The notes under the pieces: model-generated
Databases searched by the model: none
What the model saw: the letters and a program-made list of their open reading frames with translations, nothing else
Told to the model about the DNA's origin: nothing
Translations under genes and position numbers: made by a program
Source: Branchiostoma floridae
Taxonomy: Eukaryota > Chordata > Leptocardii > Amphioxiformes > Branchiostomatidae
Direction: 5' to 3'
DNA: 64,000 nt
Assembly: GCF_000003815.2 (NCBI RefSeq)
Contig: NC_049979.1
Span: 20,160,291 to 20,224,290 of the forward strand
Part shown: positions 43,939 through 57,590 of the stretch, piece by piece
How positions within the stretch are numbered: position 1 is the stretch's first letter
How the letters are laid out: each line of letters starts with the position of its first letter

Positions 43939-46900
43939 ATGGCGCGTTTTATCCTGCACCTGAGCATCGTGGTTGTCGTTCTGTTTTCCGTCCCAATCCA
44001 CTGTCAGAAGAAGAACGAATCCGAGGGAGTGATATTTTTGGACGAGTACGACACACTGGCGAAGGAACTGCAGAACCGTGCCGTCATCGCTGGATGGAAC
44101 TACCAGACGGACTTGACTGACGAAAACGCCAAGAAACAGGTATCAAATATATCCTCAACTTTGTCTCTATGTCTTCTGTTTTCTTTAGTCGGGCAAAACT
44201 GAGATTGAGAACAAAAAAACGCAACGCATGTACTAGCGCCCGTTTCCTTGTCTCATGGGTTGGGCGGGGGTCTACGGTAATATCCCAACAAATGAATATG
44301 CCGTTTTACGTCTCCAGTGGTGCACTCTTTCTTTGGTCTTTATTGGTATAGAGCTATCTAAAGGTTAGCTGCTGTAAAAAAGACGTACAAAATAATTCAA
44401 AATCGTCCGAGACTAAGCCAGATCCAAACACACCTATGAAAGCACAACTAAGTAAAGCATTGTGCGTGTGGCATTTTTTCAAATCATTGCAGCTAGTGAG
44501 ACCGGTCTTACAGAAACTCGGCAATTCTCAGTGCAATTATGTCTGTTATTTTGTTTACCCACATTTTTGCAGATATACCAGGTATTGTTTCCTGGATCGT
44601 CGACAAAAAACTTGTGTATTACTTTTGGCAAACAAGTCTGACAGCGCACCTGAAAACTTTGTAATCATTTACGTGACCTGGCAGTTATCTAAGTTGAGGG
44701 AACGGCTACTCCCTCATTATCAAAGTGCATATTTGCACCACAATCTCTACTGAACAAACAAATCCTTACACAACTGCGCAGTATGAACCCAACCAACATC
44801 TTGTTGCGTTAGTTTAAAGCAGCAGGTCAAATATGTATATATCTATACTAAAGAGAAAGAAACAGAATGTTGATGAATAATGAAGGATGAAAATTATATT
44901 GCAACACAATAGGAGCAAGAAGGAATGGGAGAAGAACAAATCACGAGTATCTATTTTCGTTCGGCCTTTTTTGATGAAGAAATTATTCAAGGAGTGAGTG
45001 TTCAGAAATGGGCTGACATAGAAATGGCAACGGAAGGTACCTAGAAACAAGACAGATATGTCCATATAATATCTGTAACCTACTTTATAACGAGTGTTCT
45101 GTGCGTTGGAGACCAGACGTGAGATGGACTTCGGTCTCTGGCCGGCTCGTGTCGTGCCCTTTACTTAACCCCTTTTTAGGTTTTTGCAAGGGTCATACTT
45201 TCCACGGTGGAGATCGATAAGGGACTGCGTCTCCAAAAAACAACCCCCTCAATCACGCCTTAGTGACGAGAGAGGCCGGTAACGCTGGTTCACCTTTATC
45301 CGTGGGGTAATCTTTATCCGTTGTTTTTCAAAACAGCGTATTTAGGGATATGAAGTCGACAGACGGTTGTTTCAAATTGTAATATATCCAAAATATAGCA
45401 GCTTGAATTCAGATTTCTTAGGCATGATATCCCTATTATAAATACCCTGCTTTGAAAACAACGACTATAGGTTACCACGCGGATAAAGGTGAACTAGGGT
45501 TACCTATTATAATAAAAGACCGGGAAAGAAATGTAACGTCTCATATTTCCGGAAAAAAGTTGAGCTGTACGTGCACTTTTCAACACAACACACAAAAGAT
45601 CAGCTCCAGTCTTTGTCAAGAAAGGAAGAATCCACTGCACCTGTGTTGGAACTTACAGTTCACCCTTTTCCAGACTTTTACCAACACAGATGAACTTTCA
45701 AGTCTTTCAAGTCATGAACTTTCATTCCGTTGTAGAAGGTGTTGCGTAGTATTTTAGGAATGTGGGGCGTTATCAACACGACCTGGTTTTATCTGGAATT
45801 TTATCTAACTAGTTAAATACAGTTGGTCGATGACCAGACTTTCAAATCAACGGTTACAAGAAGGAGTAAATGCCACGTTGTGCATTTTTTGTATAGTACA
45901 CCCCTACACACGCAAACCACTACCGCCACCACAATCTTTCCTACTCCACCGCCTCTATGAAGACACCAATAACCTGCTAACGTGACAAACTACACATTGA
46001 TTAAACACTTAATGTGGATGGGGTTATCATATGGTTATTCTTCCACTTACCAAGCTCATGACCGTTGGAAGATTGGCAGGTTGTGTGTGCTTTCACTGGG
46101 CGCCAGGAGTAGTATGTCAATAACCTGAACCTCATCATGAAAAATCGGCTATACTTGCCCCCACCCACATCCCAACTACCCCATCCGTCCCCAATTCGGA
46201 TGTCCATCGGGACAATTGTGTGGCTTCAGATCTAGAACCCAGTCGGGGCTTTGCACTTTACGGGCACAGTACACCCGATGCAAATGTGACCGTAGCACAT
46301 GACAAACTTTTGTGAATCTTTTCTGTAAAACTTAAATACTTTCACAGGTTGAGCTGAACTTGGAGGTAGCAAAGTTTGCCAAAGAGGCGGCCACGAATGC
46401 CTCCCGAGTATGACTGGGAGAACTTCAGCAACGTCACGGTGAAGCGGCTGTTCAGTATGATCACCACGCTGGGCACGGCCGCTTTGGAGGACGAGGAGAA
46501 GCTTGAACAGGTGTGATACCACAAACAAAAATGACTTTATAATCTATAACAAACGAAACAATCTGTTTCAGACATTGCCAAGTATTACAGACTTGCATTC
46601 AGAGTGCAGTAGTACAATACTGTGTACTGCATCTGTACCTGGTGTGCAAATGTATTACATACGCATCGATCTACCGTTGTATTTTGAAGAGATCTACAGT
46701 CATTGTATTCCCTTGACGACGCAGGTAGAAGATATAAATCAGATCTGTTATCCACAAACATACTGAAAGTGAATACTGTATTTTGAACACACACAAACAC
46801 ACCTTCCCTGCTCCAATTTCACAGTTAAACAACCTACTATCGGAGATGGAAGAGATCTACAGCACAGGGCAGGCCTGCGAGTATGACGACCCCAAAACGT

Positions 46901-49900
46901 GCCTGGATCTGAACCCAGGTAAAAGGTCAAAATTCATTCGGACGATATAAACAATGTATGTATACCGCATACTTGTATTCTAGATTTGGAAAGTATGCGG
47001 TACTATGCATTATTAATTTGGGCCCCGCGAACGACTACTTAGTAAGCAATGTACGGCTTCAAAATCTGTACTGTCGATTTTGGTGACGCCTCAGGAGCGA
47101 AACCCGTGGTGTCACAACACCACGGTATTGGAGAAGTTTCAAACCCATGCATTCCCTAGGGTATTTCTAATGTTCCTGGATGACTTGATTTTCGTAGTTG
47201 CCTCTTGAAACCTGTGACTAAAATCGCACTCCTACTCGACAGGCCTGGAAGACTGCATGGCCGACAGTACCGACTATAACAGACTGCTGTTCTGTTGGGA
47301 GGGCTGGCGTGACGCGGCCGGGCGCCGTCTCGGAGATCTCTACTCGCAGTTCGTGGAACTCAGTAATGAGGCCGTGAGAGCAGATGGTAAGGGGAAACAT
47401 TAGCAGTTGACAACAGACCAAAGCTTAACATTGAAATTTTGTTTTTGAATTTGATTAGAGAACAACCGTTTAAGGAGCTATTTCTGTTACACGGAGCTGC
47501 TCACTAAGAAATCATGTTTCCTCACTCTGTATTTACCTCCGTGAGAGCCGAGGTATTGGTTTCGATTTCATTGTTTGTATTGGGATGTGTGCAAGGTTTT
47601 ACCTCTGGTCGGGGTCCAAGGTGCAGAATTTGTGGCGGGAAAAAGTGTGACTGTAGATTGGTTTAGCCCTGATCCAAAATTGATGGCAGAAACTGGGTAC
47701 AATCAATGTCTCACAATTGCAAGAAGTCAGGGAAATGCAAAGACGAACTTGGTGCAAAGACGAACTTGGCGATCGAGAAATTCACAATAATCAATAAAGC
47801 TAGAAATTCACAAAAACTTGAATATTTATACAGCACGGAAGTATGAGATGTTCCCCTGTTCATTTAGGTTGGAATGACACAGGGGAGTACTGGCGATCCT
47901 GGTACGAGACTGCAGACTTGCAACAGCAGCTGGAAACCATCTACCAGGACCTACAGCCGCTGTACCAGAACCTGCACGCCTACGTCAGGAGGAAACTCAT
48001 CAACACGTACGGAGCGGAAATGGTGAACGCCGAGGGGCCAATCCCGGCCCATCTATTGGGTGAGACTAAATTTGAGACCATGTAAAACTGTCATAAGCTG
48101 AACTGCATTCGAATACACAACACAACACAACACAACACAACTCATTGAATTTTAGCCATCTTCTTCAGTCTTCGTCAAGTTGGAATAACTTAACAGGTCA
48201 CGTGATCTTACAAACACGTGACGTCACAAATTGTAAACGGTGTCAGGACGTTTATATACCACCCTGTCTCTGTGTGTCAGGCTATAACTTATTTTGTGCT
48301 CTATTGTGATCCATCGTAGGTAACATGTGGGCCCAGACGTGGGGAAACATCTACAACCTTCACTGGAAAAAATGGGTTCAAATGCAGTCAAATCCGGGCC
48401 GTTATCTTTCCGTATCCTTGAAGGATACGATCGTTTACGGACAGATGCGAGCGGAATCTGTTACGGATCCGAAATTTCGGATTTTCTCGAATCCGGACTA
48501 ATTAAACACGGAAAAATACGAAATCCGTATTTTTGGCAAATACGGTAGTGGATCCCATTGGTATTTTTTCGTATCCTTACCGCGGAGAACACGTCGAAAC
48601 GTCGGTATTTTTCCGTATACTAACCAAATCCCAAACGTATTTGCTACGTATACGTAGATACGAAATTCGGACTTTCTCGGATTCTAACCAAATCCGAAAG
48701 CTGTATCCGCCCGTATTTTGGATACGTTTATGCAGATACGAAATGCGGATTTTCCCGGATCCTAACCAAATCCGAAAGCTGTATCCGCCCGTATTTTGGA
48801 TACGTTTATGCAGATACGAAATGCGGATTTTCCCGGATCCTAACCAAATCCGAAAGCTGTATCCGCCCGTATTTTGGATACGTTTATGCAGATACGAAAT
48901 GCGGATTTTCCCGGATCCTAACCAAATCCGAAAGCTGTATCCGCCCGTATTTTGGATACGTTTATGCAGATACGAAATGCGGTATCCGCCCGTATTTTGT
49001 CTAAGTTTAGATAGTACATACCTACGGAACAATTCAGATTTCGGATTTTCTTGAATGGGATCCAAGAAAAGTATACGTAGCAAATAAGTGGGGATACAGG
49101 TTTCGCATTTGGTTGGATCGGAAATATCCATATAGTCTTATATCCAGGTATATAATTTTGCGGCCTTTTATTCAAAACTTGTAGTTAACGTCGATGGCAT
49201 TGGGATCAATCGCAGTGACTGTGCAATTTCAAAATGATTCACGATTCTGTGCTGTGTCCAACCAATTGGTCCAACTCAGACTCCATTGTCCAGCGACACT
49301 CCGGGGCCGGGACCAGGGGTAGTTATTAAAAAGAGCACACGGTTCCAACAGGCTACGGAAGGAGGAATAATCCGCTGAGATTTGCGCAGTCCGATCCATA
49401 TGACTTGTGTTGGATAGGTCGCAAAGTTTGTTCACCTTGCAATCTCGGCTCAAAGTGAATTTACCATTCCGTGACCTTGCACAAATCTCCAACATAATCC
49501 GCCTCATCAACTTTGTACAGAATCCAGGCATCCTAGCGCATATAGCTTGGCGTTCTTTGGGTCGGCGGGGTCCCAGCTGGAAAGCAAAGTCCCGACCAGA
49601 ACTTCAGAGGTAAAACAGGTCCAAACTTTCTCCATTTCTTCTCCTCTCGCAACAGAGGCCCGGAAAATGCTTGCTTCGTCTCGCATAACGGTACATTTGA
49701 AATCCCCAGACTTGCCTGTCATTGGGTACTCCTTGTCACATGACTCTCATCTGGCCCGAACGGAGACCTGCCCCCCGTTGGTGCTGATTGCTTGTTTACC
49801 AATTAACACCGAATAAATTTACATTTAAAAAGCACAGTGGCTGTGACACGCATTTGACCCGGACAAAACACATGAAACAAGCAACAAGTTACTATTATTT

Positions 49901-52900
49901 TACCAGATCGACGCTGAATGGCCGGGAGAAGTGTATTAAACCGTTCGATAGGCGCAGGCAGAATTTCTGTTAGGACGCCTTTCTAAAGATTCTACTTGTC
50001 ACTTGTAGCTTTAATACAATTAAACACTCGAATCCTGTGTATTTTGTTATATTTCATTTAGCCATTTATAGCCTTTCTACAGCGTACGGATGGGTACGGA
50101 TCCCGGCAGATACCAAGGTATCCGTCAAATCTCTCAAATGTGGATGCGGAAGATTCCGAACAAATACGAACGAATCCCAGATTCTAAAGGATACGCCAAA
50201 GTACCGAACAGATGCGACACTGTATCTGCTGGAATTATAACACACAAGGAATACGCTGTCGTATATACATGGATCCCTGGCTGTCAACGAACATGGAAAT
50301 GCTCTTTTTGGGTCAGGAGAGCAAATTAATAGTTTTCAACAAACAAGGTGTATGTCTGATGTCGAGGAACCGTTCCGCATGCAATAAAGTTGGTTTCGAG
50401 GAAATCGGACATTGTTTCGCGAAACCTGAATTTTTTGTGAAAAATGCTCTTTTTGGCTCAGCAGAGGAAATTACCATTTGTCGACAAAAAATGTGTATGT
50501 CTGATGTCGAGGAACCATTCCGCATGCAATAAAGTTGGTTTCGAGGAAATCGGACATTGTTTCGCGAAACCTGAATTTTTTGTGAAAAATGCTCTTTTTG
50601 GCTCAGCAGAGGAAATTACCATTTGTCGACAAAAAATGTGTATGTCTGATGTCGAGGAACCATTCCGCATGCAATAAAGTTGGTTTCGAGGAAATCGGAC
50701 ATTGTTTCGCGAAACCTGAATTTTTGGTGAAAAATGCTCTTTTTGGCTCAGCAGAGCAAATTACCATTTGTCGACAAAAAATGTGTATGTCTGATTTCGA
50801 GGAACCATTCCGCATGCAATAAAGTTGGTTTCGAGGAAATCGGACATTGTTTCGCGAAACCTGAATTTTTGGTGAAAAAATGCTCTTTTTGGCTCAGCAG
50901 AGCAAATTACCATTTGTCGACAAAAAATGTGTATGTCTGATTTCGAGGAACCATTCCGCATGCAATAAAGTTGGTTTCGAGGAAATCGGACATTGTTTCG
51001 CGAAACCTGAATTTTTGGTGAAAAATGCTCTTTTTGGCTCAGCAGAGGAAATTACCATTTGTCGACAAAAAATGTGTATGTCTGATTTCGAGGAACCATT
51101 CCGCATGCAATAAAGTTGGTTTCGAGGAAATCGGACATTGTTTCGCGAAACCTGAATTTTTGGTGAAAAATGCTCTTTTTGGCTCAGCAGAGCAAATTAC
51201 CATTTTTCGACAAAAAATGTGTATTTCTGGTGTCGAGGAACCGTTCCGCATGCAATAAAGTTGGTTTCGAGGAAATCGGACATTGTTTCGCGAAACCTGA
51301 ATTTTTTGTGAAAAATGCTTTTTTTGGCTCAGTAGAGCAAATTACCATTTTTCGACAAAAAATGTGTATGTCTGATGTCGAGGAACCATTCCGCATGCAA
51401 TAAAGTTGGTTTCGAGGAAATCGGACATTGTTTCGCGAACCCTGTATTTTTTTGTGAAAAATGCTCTTTTTGGCTCAGGAGAGCAAATTACCATTTTTCG
51501 GCAAAAAATATGTATGTCTGATGTCGAGGAACCATTCCGCATGCAATAAAGTTGGTACGGAGAAAATCATACATCGTTTCGCGAAACCTGTACTTTTTGT
51601 GAAAAATGCTCTTTTTGGCTCAGCAGAGCAAATTACCATTTTTCGACAAAAAATGTGTATGTCTGGTGTCGAGGAACCGTTCCGCATGCAATAAAGTTGG
51701 TTTCGAGGAAATCGGACATTGTTTCGCGAAACCTGAATTTTTTGAGAAAAATGCTCTTTTTGGCTCAGTAGAGCAAATTACCATTTTTCGACAAAAAATG
51801 TGTATGTCTGCATGTTGAGGAATCGTTCCGCATGCAATTAAGTTGGTTTCGAGGAAATCGGACATTGTTTCGCGAACCCTGTATTTTTTGTGAAAAATGC
51901 TCTTTTTGGCTCAGCAGAGCAAATTACCATTTTTCGACAAACAAGGTTTATGCCTGATGTAGAGGAACCGTTCCGCATCCAATAAAGTTGGTTCCGAGGA
52001 AATCGGACATTGTTTCGCGAAACCTGAATTTTTTGTGAAAAATGCTCTTTTTGGCTCGGGGGAGCAAATTACCATTTTTCGACAAACAAGGTGTATGTCT
52101 GATGTCGAGGAATTTTTCCGCATGCAATAAAGTTGGTTCCGAGGAAATCGGACATTGTTTCGCGAAACCTGTATTTTTTGTGAAAAATGCTCTTTTTGGC
52201 TCAAGAGAGCAAATAACTATTTTTCGACAAACAATGTGTATGTCTGATCGGAAATCGGACTTCTTTTCGCGAAACCTGTACTTTTTGTGAAAAATGAGAG
52301 GTGGGGGTAACAAATCCATAGAAAATACGAAATGGTATTTCCTAGGATCCGTCTGCCGTGAGGTGGGGCAACGAATCCATAGAAAATACGGAAAGGGTAT
52401 TTCCTATGATCCGTCTGCTGTGAGGTGGGCAACGAATCCATAGAAAATACGGAAAAGGATTTGCTAGGATCCATCTGCCGTGAGGTGGGGCAACGTATTC
52501 GTAGAAAATACGGGAAAAGGATTTGCTAGGATCCATAGATTGACCCTGGACATTTCTGTCGCGAAGTGGGCCATCTGAACCATAGAAAATACAGAAAAGA
52601 GATTCGTTAGGATCTGCAGATTATCCTTGATGCCTTTTTGCCGTGAAATGGGCCAGCGGATCCATAGAAATACGGAATAGGGATCTTCTAGTATTTGTGT
52701 ATTTTCAGAACGTACTTTTATCGAAGAGTGGGCCCGCCGATGGGTAAAATGTTTTTATGACGCAAAAGGAAACTCAAGACCAGATTGAACATTGCAGATT
52801 TCCAAATTGAAGGATTCGAGCAAATGACATTTTCGTATTTGTTAACAGTAAGGGATCCAACTGTAGACGACATAGTATCTCTTCGTATTTTTCATCCTAG

Positions 52901-55900
52901 CGGATACAGTATCGTATCTGTTCAGTGTTTTGTCGTATCCTATTAGAATCTGTGATTCGTTCGTATTTGTTTGGATTCTTCTGCATCCGCACCTAACGAA
53001 TACCGCGGTATATGCCCGCATCCGTATCGGTATATGCCCGCATCCGTATCCATTTTGTCCAGTGCTTGTCATTCCGTTTCCCAACAAGCCAAGTATTGAC
53101 GTAACGGATGAGATGGTGAGACAGGTAAGAAAACTTCCAACATTTTTTCTGCTCGAGTCCCTCTTTATATAGGTATAAATAAGACAAAGTAGTGCTATCT
53201 AATGACATTTTATGACAATACAATGGTTGAATAAAACGATTTGAGAAGACACAAGGATTAGACTTCGATCGTTTCTCTGAGTTTCTTTCGCGCTTAAAGA
53301 TGAATGCGGACATGCAGGGGTTTTCAGTACACGTTCTATTACGGAAGTGTGGCGTGAACAATGGCTCAAATGTTGTTGGTAGTTAATAGAGATCCCCGTC
53401 CTGGTTCATTGATGGTAGATGTGTCGATTAACTTGTCAAAAACTTTGGTGATGTTACGAAGTTAATATTCTATTTACTACTACTCCGTATATCAACACAG
53501 ACTAACTTTCATGCTGTGTCCCACATTGCTATCTTATTTCCTAGCGTAAAAATAACCGTTAAATCATTTCTTTTGAAGGGTTACGACGCCCGGAGAATGT
53601 TCAACCTGTCGGACGAGTTTTTCCGTGAGATGGGGCAGATCCCGATGCCTGGCAGCTTCTGGGACAGGACCATGTTCGTCCGGCCTGACGACAGGGAGGT
53701 CGTCTGTCACGCCTCGGCATGGGACTTCTACCTGGACAATGACGTCAGGATCAAGATGTGCACGAAGGTGAACCAGGAGGACCTGGTGACGGTCCATCAC
53801 GAGATGGGGCATATAGAGTACTTCCTGCAGTACGCGCACCAACCGCTGCCCTTCCGCGAGGGCGCTAATCCAGGTACACTAGAATGAGATAGAACTTTCC
53901 AAAGATATTATCCATTAGTGCCACCTAGCTACTGAAAAAGCACTGCAGTATATCCCAGATATTCTTCACAGCCTAATACAGAGATCTAGAGGGAACGATT
54001 CGATGGAAAATAAGCAGCAACATTGGCTCTTTTTGTTTTTGATCGTCTATAACGTTACATGTTAAATATGTAAATAGTATTTTTATTTGCCAATCTCTCC
54101 AAATTTGAAGCAATATCTATTGAAGCTGGCCCGATTCGTGCCAATTATCGTTTGAAAAAGAAGACACCAGATTGCTAGTATGTAGCGTATGTCCTTTTGG
54201 CCGCCAGGGTTCCATGAGGCCGTGGGTGACCTGTTGGCTCTGTCCGTGTCCACTCCCGCCCATCTCAACAAGGTCGGACTCCTTCCCGAGCTGGTGGACG
54301 ATCCTGGTAAGTAGATATGGAGCTAAAACGTCTCTCTTGATCACAGCGTTAGCCCACCGGGTTAGCGATTTTCAACGTTAGCTAGGTTCTCTTATGTCGG
54401 GAAAGGGAGTTTGTTGAGGAAAGGAGTTTGCCGTGTGTGAAGGGAGTTCCCCGTGTACTAGTCCCGTGTACTAGAAGGGAGTACTAGTTTTCCCCAAGTA
54501 TGCGACGGGAGGCTACTCCAAGTCCAACTTAATAAATTCACTGTTTTATTCCTTAACGGAAAGGCTCAGCAGTTTTTAAAATCAAATGTTTTTGCAGAGG
54601 TTGACATCAATTTCCTGATGCAAATGGCGCTGGAGAAGATCGCTTTCCTGCCGTTCGGTTACCTGATCGACCAGTGGAGGTGGCGGGTTTTCGACGGAAG
54701 CACAACGAAGGACAAGTACAATGAGGAGTGGTGGAAACTGAGGTAGATGGGTAAAAACGTCAGTCTATGCTCTCAAAGCGATTTTGATAAAGGTGGCGGT
54801 TCATGGTAGCTTGCAATAGCATTTTACCGCAGCAGTTCAGTGCTTTGATATGAACCAGCCAGTCAGTGATAATGTATTTATAATCTTGTGACTTGTGACG
54901 TATCCTAATCGTGGGTAGTTTGCAGCTGAACGATCAAAACATTTCATGTGTAACCTTAAATGTGTTTTGAAAATAAAGGTAGAAATCTAAAATCATTAAT
55001 CGTTTGAAATAGTCTTTGTCTGCACGACTTGCTCTGAATGTTATACATTTGTACATGCTTTCCTCGTCGTTTAAGGACCCAGTACCAGGGTATTGTACCT
55101 CCTGTACCGAGAAATCCAGACAAGGACTTCGATGCTGGCAGCAAGTACCACGTTCCCGCCAATACTCCATACATAAGGTACGGGGCACGTTTGATTAATG
55201 TGTTCTCTACAACGTCAATACAAATGTTTAAGAACTGACATAATTCTTATTCTGTTAGGGTGACTTCAAATGCCAGTGCTGTCGATGTTTCCTTCTTGGC
55301 GGACCCACTAAAAGTTTACCATTGTGTATCTTCTATCGGGTGGTATAAACCACACAGTTCATTTTGCCGATAAGGTACTGGTCACATTCGTCGCACGATA
55401 AATAAACGACAGCAACTTGAGGATCGTCTTGGCTGCGTCGTAGAAGACGAGCAACACTCAGAACAAAAAAAACACGAACCCAACCCAACAAAACAAAGAA
55501 ACAAGCAAATACACACGTACACGGATTGCGTTTGGCTGACGTTACGACGTGCACACTCGGAGAATGTGAGATATGTAGTAGTAGACTACTGTCTGTTGAT
55601 AACTTCTGTTCCACTGTACTTGCAGATACTTTGTGAGTTTCGTCATCCAGTTCCAGTTCCATGAGGCCATGTGCAGTCTGTCGGGCTATACAGGAGACCT
55701 GCACAAGTGCGACGCGTCCGCCGGGGCCATGAAGGACGTAGCCGGCAGCAGACTGGCGTAAGATTTAGTGTTTTACCGTACTACGATGCAAAGGGACTCA
55801 ATTTTCTACAAAACAAACGTACACTATTGATGTCCCAGAAAGTAGGCAAACTTATTCCCATTTTGGTAGAGCTTGAATTAGCAACTAGAAGCTCAAGCTA

Positions 55901-56393: not shown

Positions 56394-57590
56394 ATCAGAA
56401 TGTTAATGTCTATCATATTGCAGTGAAATGTTGAGGATGGGAAAGAGCCAACCCTGGCCGGAGGCGTTCGAGGTTCTGACCGGAGATCGTGAGATGTCCG
56501 CGGCCGCCATACTACAGTACTTCGCTCCTCTGATTGACTGGCTGGAGAAACAGAACGAGAACGAGACTCTGGGCTGGAATAACGGCTGGACCCCACCATG
56601 TAAGTCACGACGTTTTATGAGAATGAAACAGGAAAAAAAGTGACAAAAAAGCTATATCAAGGAGAAGTGTCTTGAAAATCTGTAAAAAAATTCATCGTAT
56701 AATAGCGATTTGCATTGTGCTTCTCTATTAGTCGATTTTTGTCGGGATTTGTTCTCATTGCCGTTCTATCGCCCGGTAATGGTCAACTAGCGTCATCGTG
56801 CGGCAAAGTGTTTGAACTGCATGCGCGATGAAGGGGAAGAGTCTTCACGTCAAAGCATGAAACTAGTGAACAATCAGCCAGCTGGGTTGTTGTCGGATAA
56901 GTGGATTACGATATTAGCCTTTAAATGAGTCATCGAAATTTTAATCATTGAGCACTTCCACTCCATACTTTTATTTCAGGGTACACATGATTGTAGAGCA
57001 TATCATAGAATGCCATGCATCTAACGTTACTCTTTTCTGGACAAAATGCCCATGTCTGTTACCATTTGCTTGTCTTTACATAAATTGCTTTATTATATTC
57101 CATCTGCGCACCTGTACAGACGACTGTGAGGGAACAGGTGGCTTCACGTGTCTGGAGGGGTCCAGGTGTGTCCGGCCTGCCGACAAGTGTGACGGGATCC
57201 AGGACTGTGACGACAACTCAGACGAGGATCCGATCCTCTGTGAAACCCCGAACGGTAGGTCTTCGATCTACAGAGCGTTTTCATGTGACATGATATATAG
57301 TGGCAACAACATGGAGGCGTACCCAGATATTTGCTTTTTTTTTACATCTAAGCATCTTCTAACAATCAAACTCTAAACTAATATTTCAGCTCACAAAAGA
57401 GAATACTAGAATATCGCATAGAAATGTAACGTTGGTAGCGATAAGAACGAAAAACGATTATTGTTTGCCTTTGACTTTTTACATTGTCAATTTGTTGTTC
57501 ATCACAGATGATTCCCCAAGAATGACATCATCACTTGTTGTCGTCTTCCTGGCAGTCCTCGCCTCGACAGTGATGACGTCAAGGATCTAG
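43939..57590 (+). CDS. ACE: ACE-like peptidyl-dipeptidase with C-terminal LDLa domain, disrupted in this assembly
   Basis: Fourteen exons: 43939-44139, 46348-46510, 46825-46918, 47243-47386, 47868-48059, 48320-48360 plus 53068-53124 (one exon split by a transposon), 53579-53873, 54208-54306, 54598-54742, 55076-55177, 55626-55757, 56424-56599, 57120-57254, 57508-57590. All junctions are GT-AG with matching phase. Ignoring one inserted base and the transposon, the product is 685 residues. A signal peptide (residues 1-22) precedes a single M2 metallopeptidase domain. Zinc ligands are HEMGH (371-375) and Glu399 in [23 protein letters not shown], the KYHVP and YIRYFVSF substrate-site segments and HEAMC are also present. 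Such enzymes cleave C-terminal dipeptides from peptides at the cell surface. Residues about 614-658 form an LDL-receptor class A module, and the end is hydrophobic. Oddities: a +1 frameshift in exon 2 and the insertion in exon 6, so this copy may not make full protein. Confidence 0.93.
45278..45504. mobile_element. MITE in ACE intron 1
   Basis: The left end GGTAACGCTGGTTCACCTTT and right end AAAGGTGAACTAGGGTTACC are inverted repeats. The second layer (GTTGTTTTTCAAAACAGCG... / ...CCCTGCTTTGAAAACAACG) is also inverted. The element has no coding capacity. Confidence 0.8.
46348..46510 (+). CDS. ACE: ACE exon 2 with one-base frameshift
   Basis: The exon is 163 bases, whereas its neighbours' phases require 162. 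Frame 0 runs through [11 protein letters not shown] and then hits TGA at 46411-46413. From just after CCC at 46403-46405 the next frame gives [16 protein letters not shown], which is plainly the continuation of the ACE fold. One surplus C in that run is the simplest explanation, either a sequencing or assembly error or a real null allele. Confidence 0.85.
48114..48141. repeat. ACAAC-type microsatellite in ACE intron 5
   Basis: Short run of CACAA repeats just downstream of exon 5. Confidence 0.85.
48645..49010. repeat. 78-base tandem repeat within the transposon
   Basis: Unit starts (CCGCCCGTATTTTGGATACG) at 48707, 48785, 48863 and 48941 are exactly 78 bases apart, with a diverged unit before and a truncated one after. 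Units are nearly identical, implying recent expansion. The apparent peptide frames are by-products. Confidence 0.95.
50297..52298. repeat. 145-base satellite-like tandem array within the transposon
   Basis: About 14 units of 145-146 bases start with AATGCTCTTTTTGGCTCAG at about 50297, 50442, 50587, 50732, 50878, 51023, 51168, 51314, 51459 and onward to about 52185. Each unit has GCATGCAATAAAGTTGG, so nearly every unit carries AATAAA on the plus strand, the sense strand of ACE. Divergence rises toward the right end. Confidence 0.95.
52300..52545. repeat. 61-62-base tandem repeat within the transposon
   Basis: About four units of TGAGGTGGGGCAACGAATCC, then ATAGAAAATACGG and GATCCGTCTGCCG. More diverged relatives continue to about 52740. 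Confidence 0.85.
56011..56222. mobile_element. MITE with internal TTCGCGGT motifs, copy 3, in ACE intron 11
   Basis: Left TACTGTAAATGCATTTAAG and right GCATTTACTGTA are inverted ends. The interior repeats AAGTTCGCGG in both orientations (for example GTGGTTTTAAGTTCGCGGTG and CACCGCGAAAACCGCGAAC), giving a strong hairpin. TA may be the target site. Confidence 0.85.
56352..56390. repeat. GA microsatellite
   Basis: Perfect AG repeat in ACE intron 11, 33 bases before the exon 12 boundary. Confidence 0.95.
57120..57254 (+). CDS. ACE: ACE exon 13: LDL-receptor class A module
   Basis: One 135-base exon, phase 1-1, encodes a complete LDLa module: [33 protein letters not shown], then a final Cys. All six Cys and the acidic calcium-binding motif ([13 protein letters not shown]) are present. 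The acceptor (cctgtacag) and donor (gtaggt) are good and the flanking phases fit exons 12 and 14. Confidence 0.9.

What the first reader, a model, noticed from the sequence alone, without database searches (positions are those of the whole stretch)
48358..53067. Transposon inserted into a coding exon of ACE, with a clean CTT target duplication
Directly seen: the ACE reading frame stops at ...AACCTT, a CACTGG-ended element follows for 4,704 bases, and coding resumes at CTTGTCATTCCG with the next conserved residues. Excising the element plus one CTT restores phase and the family sequence exactly. Insertion into a coding exon, not an intron, usually means a null allele, a very recent event, or a polymorphism captured from one haplotype.
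Basis: partly seen in the sequence, partly recalled or inferred. Interest (0 to 1): 0.9.

Follow-up and report, generated by a model that had tools for sequence, protein, structure and literature searches.

The report
Young CACTA-type transposon splits ACE exon
In what is probably a lancelet genome, a recently active jumping gene sits inside a protein-coding exon of one of many ACE-like genes and interrupts it, a real but ordinary mutation that is probably carried by only some individuals.

Summary
A 4,704-bp element (48361-53064) with imperfect inverted ends and a CTT duplication on each side interrupts exon 6 of an ACE (Peptidase_M2) gene. It is not a chimera: 17 near-identical copies were found by their 5' end; 15 have both ends, and 14 of those 15 have perfect 3-bp duplications. 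The 17 differ by 0.68% on average; this one has 3 private changes in 1,799 sites. With the published B. floridae mutation rate that is roughly 0.3 million generations, far below neutral coalescence time, so a segregating insertion is expected, though not observed. Best filed as a non-autonomous CACTA/EnSpm-type element; its driver was not identified. Two corrections: the insertion is not the gene's only lesion, because exon 2, about 2 kb upstream, carries a +1 frameshift, real or an assembly error; and ACE is a multigene family here, so loss of one copy may be tolerated. A second copy of the family interrupts an H-type lectin frame. New member of a known kind, of moderate interest.

The parts
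48358..48360 (+). Left target-site duplication CTT, also the last codon of the left half of ACE exon 6
   Evidence: 3-bp duplications in 14 of 15 two-ended copies of the family
48361..53064 (+). Non-autonomous CACTA/EnSpm-type element, 4,704 bp
   Evidence: 17 near-identical copies by 5' end in the genome, this one included; mean pairwise difference 0.68% on unique blocks
48361..48375 (+). 5' terminal inverted repeat CACTGGAAAAAATGG
53050..53064 (-). 3' terminal inverted repeat (CACTGGACAAAATGG on the minus strand); on the plus strand it ends ...CCATTTTGTCCAG|TG, a candidate splice acceptor
48645..48982 (+). 78-bp tandem array, 4.3 copies
49160..50060 (+). Unique central segment; beyond 17 family copies (this one included) the search lists one 82% relative on C6 and short segments at 69-82%; the longest frame here, as read in sister copy L018, has no Pfam match
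50297..52248 (+). 145-bp tandem array, 13.4 copies; array length varies between family copies
52298..52681 (+). 61-bp (3.9 copies) and 81-bp (2.2 copies) tandem repeats near the 3' end
50139..50301 (-). Inner inverted copy of the 3' subterminal region (partner 52828-52991; 73% and 90% complementary stretches)
53006..53049 (+). 22-bp tandem duplication next to the 3' end; the 14 other two-ended copies lack the second unit
53065..53067 (+). Right target-site duplication CTT
43939..44139 (+). ACE exon 1 (probable signal peptide, judged by eye)
46348..46510 (+). ACE exon 2, with a +1 frameshift within about 46399-46406
   Evidence: 163 nt; halves match PF01401 positions 2-62 and 64-128 in different frames; compared with one paralog exon in L041
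46825..46918 (+). ACE exon 3
47243..47386 (+). ACE exon 4 (start read by eye from the sequence printed)
47868..48059 (+). ACE exon 5
48320..48360 (+). ACE exon 6, left half (start read; one search used a start one base too far)
53068..53124 (+). ACE exon 6, right half
53579..53873 (+). ACE exon 7, with the HEMGH zinc-binding site at 53798
54208..54306 (+). ACE exon 8
54598..54742 (+). ACE exon 9
55076..55177 (+). ACE exon 10
55626..55757 (+). ACE exon 11
56424..56599 (+). ACE exon 12
57120..57260 (+). Exon 13, LDL-receptor class A domain (3' boundary not determined; 57260 is where I stopped)

Best explanation
A non-autonomous CACTA/EnSpm-type DNA transposon from a small, very young family was cut and pasted into exon 6 of one of several lancelet ACE genes, duplicating 3 bp (CTT). 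It has no recognisable transposase and would have been moved in trans by a CACTA transposase encoded elsewhere (inferred). The insertion ends the ACE frame before its zinc site, so this allele should make no active enzyme by ordinary splicing (inferred from the sequence). The insertion is so young relative to the population's coalescence time that it is most likely still segregating (inferred).
For: Inverted ends and exact 3-bp duplication. 17 copies, this one included, match over at least 322 of 340 bases at 99-100% identity; 15 have both ends and 14 of 15 have perfect 3-bp duplications of varied sequence. Mean pairwise difference 0.68% among 17 copies; this copy has 3 private substitutions in 1,799 sites. 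At 5.89e-9 per base per generation and Ne about 1.7 million (PMC12862219, abstract and passages) that is about 0.28 million generations (0.06-0.83) against 2Ne of 3.4 million. Three paralog exons are uninterrupted at the site. The genome has 28 Transposase_21 matches, the three best in open frames of 760, 956 and 884 aa. Read-through adds 46 element-encoded residues and stops at 48499, before HEMGH.
Against: No empty allele was seen: the right flank matches only itself. No driver was tied to these ends: by eye, none of the 28 Transposase_21 places lies within 0.2 Mb of any of the 43 exact end-pattern matches, though the autonomous element may be missing from this assembly or have diverged ends. 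The ends are CACTG, not canonical CACTA. One of 15 two-ended copies (L009) lacks the duplication, and one (L014) has a changed base in its 5' end. Private-site ages assume equal mutation rates and no gene conversion between copies. The species, and so the mutation rate used, is inferred.
Confidence: 0.85

Rival explanations
1. The element landed in an ACE copy that was already dead: the +1 frameshift in exon 2 came first and the gene was drifting.
For: Exon 2 is 163 nt, its two halves match Peptidase_M2 positions 2-62 and 64-128 in different frames, and its end phase does not fit exon 3. Many ACE paralogs remain.
Against: The other exons inspected (1, 3, 5, 7-13; exon 4) are open, with AG/GT splice sites and matching phases, so any decay is recent. 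The frameshift could be an assembly error in a short run of C, or could postdate the insertion.
Confidence: 0.3
2. The element is partly spliced out. Its end supplies a 3' splice site (CCATTTTGTCCAG|TG), and joining the exon 5 donor (48059|GTGAGA) to it gives an in-frame ACE lacking 13 residues.
For: The join is in frame and open. The last 18 bases of the element are identical in the 15 two-ended copies. PMC4219821 (passages) states that CACTA ends of Spm sometimes mimic splice sites and are recognised as intron ends, citing Menssen et al. 1990 (title seen in its reference list; paper not held).
Against: No RNA data, and the acceptor was judged by eye only. The product would lose [13 protein letters not shown] (a single V in its place), a segment conserved with solved ACE structures, and the exon 2 frameshift lies upstream. 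A frame-preserving join has a 1 in 3 chance of arising by accident.
Confidence: 0.1
3. Assembly chimera: the element was joined to the exon by misassembly of a repeat.
For: The element is repetitive, and 8 of the 16 other near-identical copies' fetched loci contain N.
Against: Exact 3-bp duplication, complete ends, no N in or near this copy, and private sequence (3 substitutions and a 22-bp duplication) that no other fetched copy explains.
Confidence: 0.03

Closest known systems
CACTA / EnSpm (En/Spm) DNA transposons, non-autonomous members such as maize dSpm
   Same: CACTG-type inverted ends, 3-bp target duplication, repeat-rich subterminal regions, tandem arrays inside, no transposase in defective members (3-bp duplication, subterminal repeats and internal satellite arrays in plant CACTA elements: PMC8978399, passages)
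   Different: Ends are CACTG rather than CACTA; the driving transposase was not identified; 145-bp and 78-bp arrays, the former varying strongly in length between copies
Chapaev transposons (related CMC group)
   Same: Related group of cut-and-paste elements; end motif similar (recalled)
   Different: Chapaev gives 4-bp target duplications (recalled); here the four bases on the two sides differ (CCTT and CTTG)
ProtoRAG / Transib elements of lancelets
   Same: DNA transposons with inverted ends in lancelets; heptamer begins CAC (recalled)
   Different: 5-bp target duplication and another heptamer (recalled); neither is seen here
Presence-absence gene variation in the B. floridae pangenome (PMC12373286)
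   Same: Loss-of-gene alleles segregating in lancelets: 2,309 dispensable genes among 41 B. floridae samples (passages)
   Different: Here the gene is interrupted by a transposon rather than absent; this locus was not looked up there

Membership tests
CACTA/EnSpm superfamily (non-autonomous member) | Inverted ends beginning CACT(A/G) | tested here: met
   CACTGGAAAAAATGG / CACTGGACAAAATGG
CACTA/EnSpm superfamily (non-autonomous member) | 3-bp target-site duplication | tested here: met
   14 of 15 two-ended copies; L009 does not
CACTA/EnSpm superfamily (non-autonomous member) | Subterminal direct and inverted repeats | tested here: met
   78-bp, 61-bp and 81-bp arrays and shorter direct and inverted repeats near the ends; binding by a transposase not testable
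CACTA/EnSpm superfamily (non-autonomous member) | Mobilised by a CACTA (Transposase_21-type) DDE transposase | tested here: inconclusive
   28 Transposase_21 matches in the genome, none tied to these ends. The window copy's longest listed frame is 184 aa; two element frames, read in sister copy L018, have no Pfam match
Chapaev | 4-bp target-site duplication (recalled) | tested here: not met
   Four bases on the two sides of this copy are CCTT and CTTG
Transib / ProtoRAG | 5-bp target-site duplication (recalled) | tested here: not met
   Five bases on the two sides of this copy differ (ACCTT and CTTGT)
Angiotensin-converting enzyme (Peptidase_M2) | Peptidase_M2 domain with HEXXH zinc site | tested here: met
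   PF01401 matches by pieces over positions 2-62, 64-128, 176-373 and 373-581; HEMGH at 53798; exon 4 by similarity to a paralog

The most novel reading that the evidence does not exclude
Both ends of this animal CACTA family carry an outward splice acceptor (CCATTTTGTCCAG|TG at one end, CCATTTTTTCCAG|TG read outward from the other), so that exon insertions are partly removed as new introns, as reported for maize Spm. Here that would give an in-frame ACE variant lacking 13 residues, and it would soften selection against coding hits such as the ACE and H-lectin copies.
Probability: 0.1. Interest if true: 0.5.

Novelty: new member of a known kind. Interest (0 to 1): 0.35.

Why it matters
It describes a very young mobile family in what is probably the Florida lancelet, with at least two insertions in coding frames captured in the reference genome. 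The family is a good candidate for scoring recent transposition and for testing how transposons create gene-loss alleles in a species with very high diversity. It also warns that this ACE gene model is broken in the reference and should be read from other individuals.

Tried and rejected
Rfam scan of the window: no match at the gathering thresholds. Search for an empty allele with the right flank: only the window itself. Autonomous partner: the five Transposase_21 loci fetched (L043-L047; 5 of 28 places) show no pair of CACT(A/G) ends alike at 13 or more of 20 bases with a 3-bp duplication within their 3.4-3.6 kb. The 12 other exact end-pattern places fetched (L028-L039) gave one near-identical 3' part (L029, 98%), one 92% (L030), one about 88% (L032) and one 72% (L034) relative, and eight without similarity; they were not scanned for transposase domains, and the Transposase_21 search lists none at them. 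A one-mismatch end search gave 457 matches against 232 for its control and listed only a part of them, so it was not used to find a partner.

Chapaev and Transib were rejected on duplication length. The idea that the central segment is a captured host gene was dropped: the search lists family copies, one 82% relative and short weak segments, and its longest frame has no Pfam match. Junction-spanning frames of at least 50 aa at the other two-ended copies: one search lists 22 (11 of 14 copies; L009 joined although it has no duplication); 14 of the 22 were scanned by Pfam; one gave a domain above its cut-off (H_lectin), two gave weak matches below their cut-offs (E 0.07-0.09). The lower private-substitution count of the two coding copies (3 of 3,594 against 76 of 25,991 in 15 others, binomial P = 0.010) is a test chosen after seeing the data, so it is only suggestive.

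Paper searches for this family or for CACTA/EnSpm elements in lancelets (8 of 8 listed; 3 of 3; 15 of 618) listed no paper that, from title and start of abstract, describes it; papers outside that library, and Repbase, were not searched. PMC4967905 was seen in passages and not used.
Full report
What is there. From 48361 to 53064 a 4,704-bp element lies between two copies of CTT (48358-48360, 53065-53067). Its ends are CACTGGAAAAAATGG and, on the other strand, CACTGGACAAAATGG. With the flanks joined and one CTT kept, the frame runs [32 protein letters not shown]. Exons 5-7 read together match Peptidase_M2 (PF01401) at 7.1e-102 and solved ACE structures without a gap at the insertion point. Three lancelet paralog exons run uninterrupted across the same site.

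The element and its family. A search with its first 340 bases finds 17 copies, this one included, matched over at least 322 bases at 99-100%. The sixteen others were fetched with flanks, together with two more distant relatives. Including the window copy, 15 have both ends, and 14 of 15 have perfect 3-bp duplications (CTT, GGG, AAA, TGG, ATA, TGA, AAA, TCT, AGT, TAA, CAT, TTT, TAT, TAT); L009 does not. In L016 and L019 no true 3' end was found; both loci hold long runs of N. L029 is a further partial copy, 98.3% identical over 1,445 bases. The exact 15-base end pattern occurs 43 times genome-wide, against 4 for the reversed control. Two-ended copies range from 2,877 to 6,070 bp. Counts of a motif of the 145-bp unit range from 1 to 16 per fetched locus, some with gaps. 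L018 and L021 carry further segments of 922 and 1,220 bases without similarity to this copy. The longest frame listed in the window copy is 184 aa and runs over the 78-bp array; two element frames read in L018 have no Pfam match.

Age. On 1,901 aligned columns of non-repeat blocks, the 17 copies differ by 0.68% on average (0.17-1.11%), and the window copy has 3 private substitutions in 1,799 comparable sites plus a 22-bp duplication that the 14 other two-ended copies lack. [quoted passage not shown] floridae (PMC12862219, abstract and passages) this gives about 0.28 million generations (0.06-0.83 million) for this insertion and about 0.57 million for the mean pair; 2Ne is 3.4 million. An insertion this young is expected to be segregating, not fixed. 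That is inference: the right flank matches only the window itself (the left flank was not searched), and no reads could be searched. Gene conversion or unequal rates between copies would shift these ages.

The gene. The ACE gene can be followed from a probable signal peptide (43939) through exon 12 (56599) to an LDL-receptor class A domain (57120-57260). Apart from the insertion, one further lesion was found: exon 2 is 163 nt, its two halves match PF01401 positions 2-62 and 64-128 in different frames, and its end phase does not fit exon 3. Whether this +1 frameshift is real, came before or after the insertion, or is an assembly error cannot be told here. The genome has at least 82 exon-level Peptidase_M2 matches on five contigs (C1, C2, C6, C16, C200, 75 of 137 first-look candidates scored), so ACE is a multigene family and loss of this copy may be tolerated.

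Effect. Ordinary read-through would add 46 element-encoded residues after CTT and stop at 48499, before the HEMGH zinc site at 53798, so the allele should give no active enzyme. Skipping exon 6 (98 nt without the element) shifts the frame. One splice path stays in frame: the exon 5 donor joined to the acceptor-like CCAG|TG at the element's end, losing 13 residues. CACTA ends acting as intron ends are reported for maize Spm (PMC4219821, passages). I have no RNA evidence, so this is given probability 0.1.

A sister case. Another copy (L010, C3:4716806-4719682, duplication GGG) splits a frame that matches the H-type lectin domain (PF09458, 2.5e-15) when the flanks are joined. It has no private substitutions in 1,795 sites. 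The two copies in coding frames together have 3 private changes in 3,594 sites against 76 in 25,991 for the other 15 (P = 0.010). This fits young coding insertions not yet removed by selection, but the test was chosen after the fact. Only 14 of the 22 junction-spanning frames listed for the other two-ended copies were scanned, and short exons would be missed.

Classification. CACTG ends, 3-bp duplications and repeat-rich subterminal regions fit a non-autonomous CACTA/EnSpm element; PMC8978399 (passages) gives 3-bp duplications and subterminal repeats as features and reports satellite arrays captured in plant CACTA elements. The genome holds 28 Transposase_21 matches, the nine best in open frames of 401-956 aa, so a driver could exist. 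Chapaev (4 bp) and Transib/ProtoRAG (5 bp), by recalled features, do not fit.

Verdict. A real, recent, ordinary gene-breaking insertion by a new member of a known kind of transposon, in what is probably a species where segregating gene loss is already documented (2,309 dispensable genes in 41 B. floridae samples, PMC12373286, passages).

Noticed in passing
46348-46510: +1 frameshift in ACE exon 2, about 2 kb upstream of the insertion; its two halves match adjacent parts of Peptidase_M2 in different frames.
   Followed up: partly
L010 (C3:4716300-4720200): A sister copy with a GGG duplication interrupts an H-type lectin (PF09458) coding frame and has no private substitutions in 1,795 sites.
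   Followed up: partly
L009 (C1:22985900-22991500): A two-ended copy without matching 3-bp flanks (AAC / TTA), perhaps from recombination or a flanking deletion.
   Followed up: no
57120-57260: An LDL-receptor class A domain follows the ACE domain; a C16 stretch with ACE paralogs (L041) has a similar one, so an ACE-LDLa architecture may be shared in lancelets.
   Followed up: no
50139-50301 and 52828-52991: The 3' subterminal region recurs inverted inside the element, suggesting that it grew from a smaller or composite element.
   Followed up: partly
C13:14275250-14279279 and C8:18357185-18358779: Arrays of the 145-bp unit at 91-94% identity (among the matches listed) outside the 17 copies; related elements or free satellite arrays.
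   Followed up: no
C5:21353424, C13:1223407, C19:6373362: Three Transposase_21 matches with equal scores and 884-aa open frames: a possibly young CACTA transposase family.
   Followed up: no
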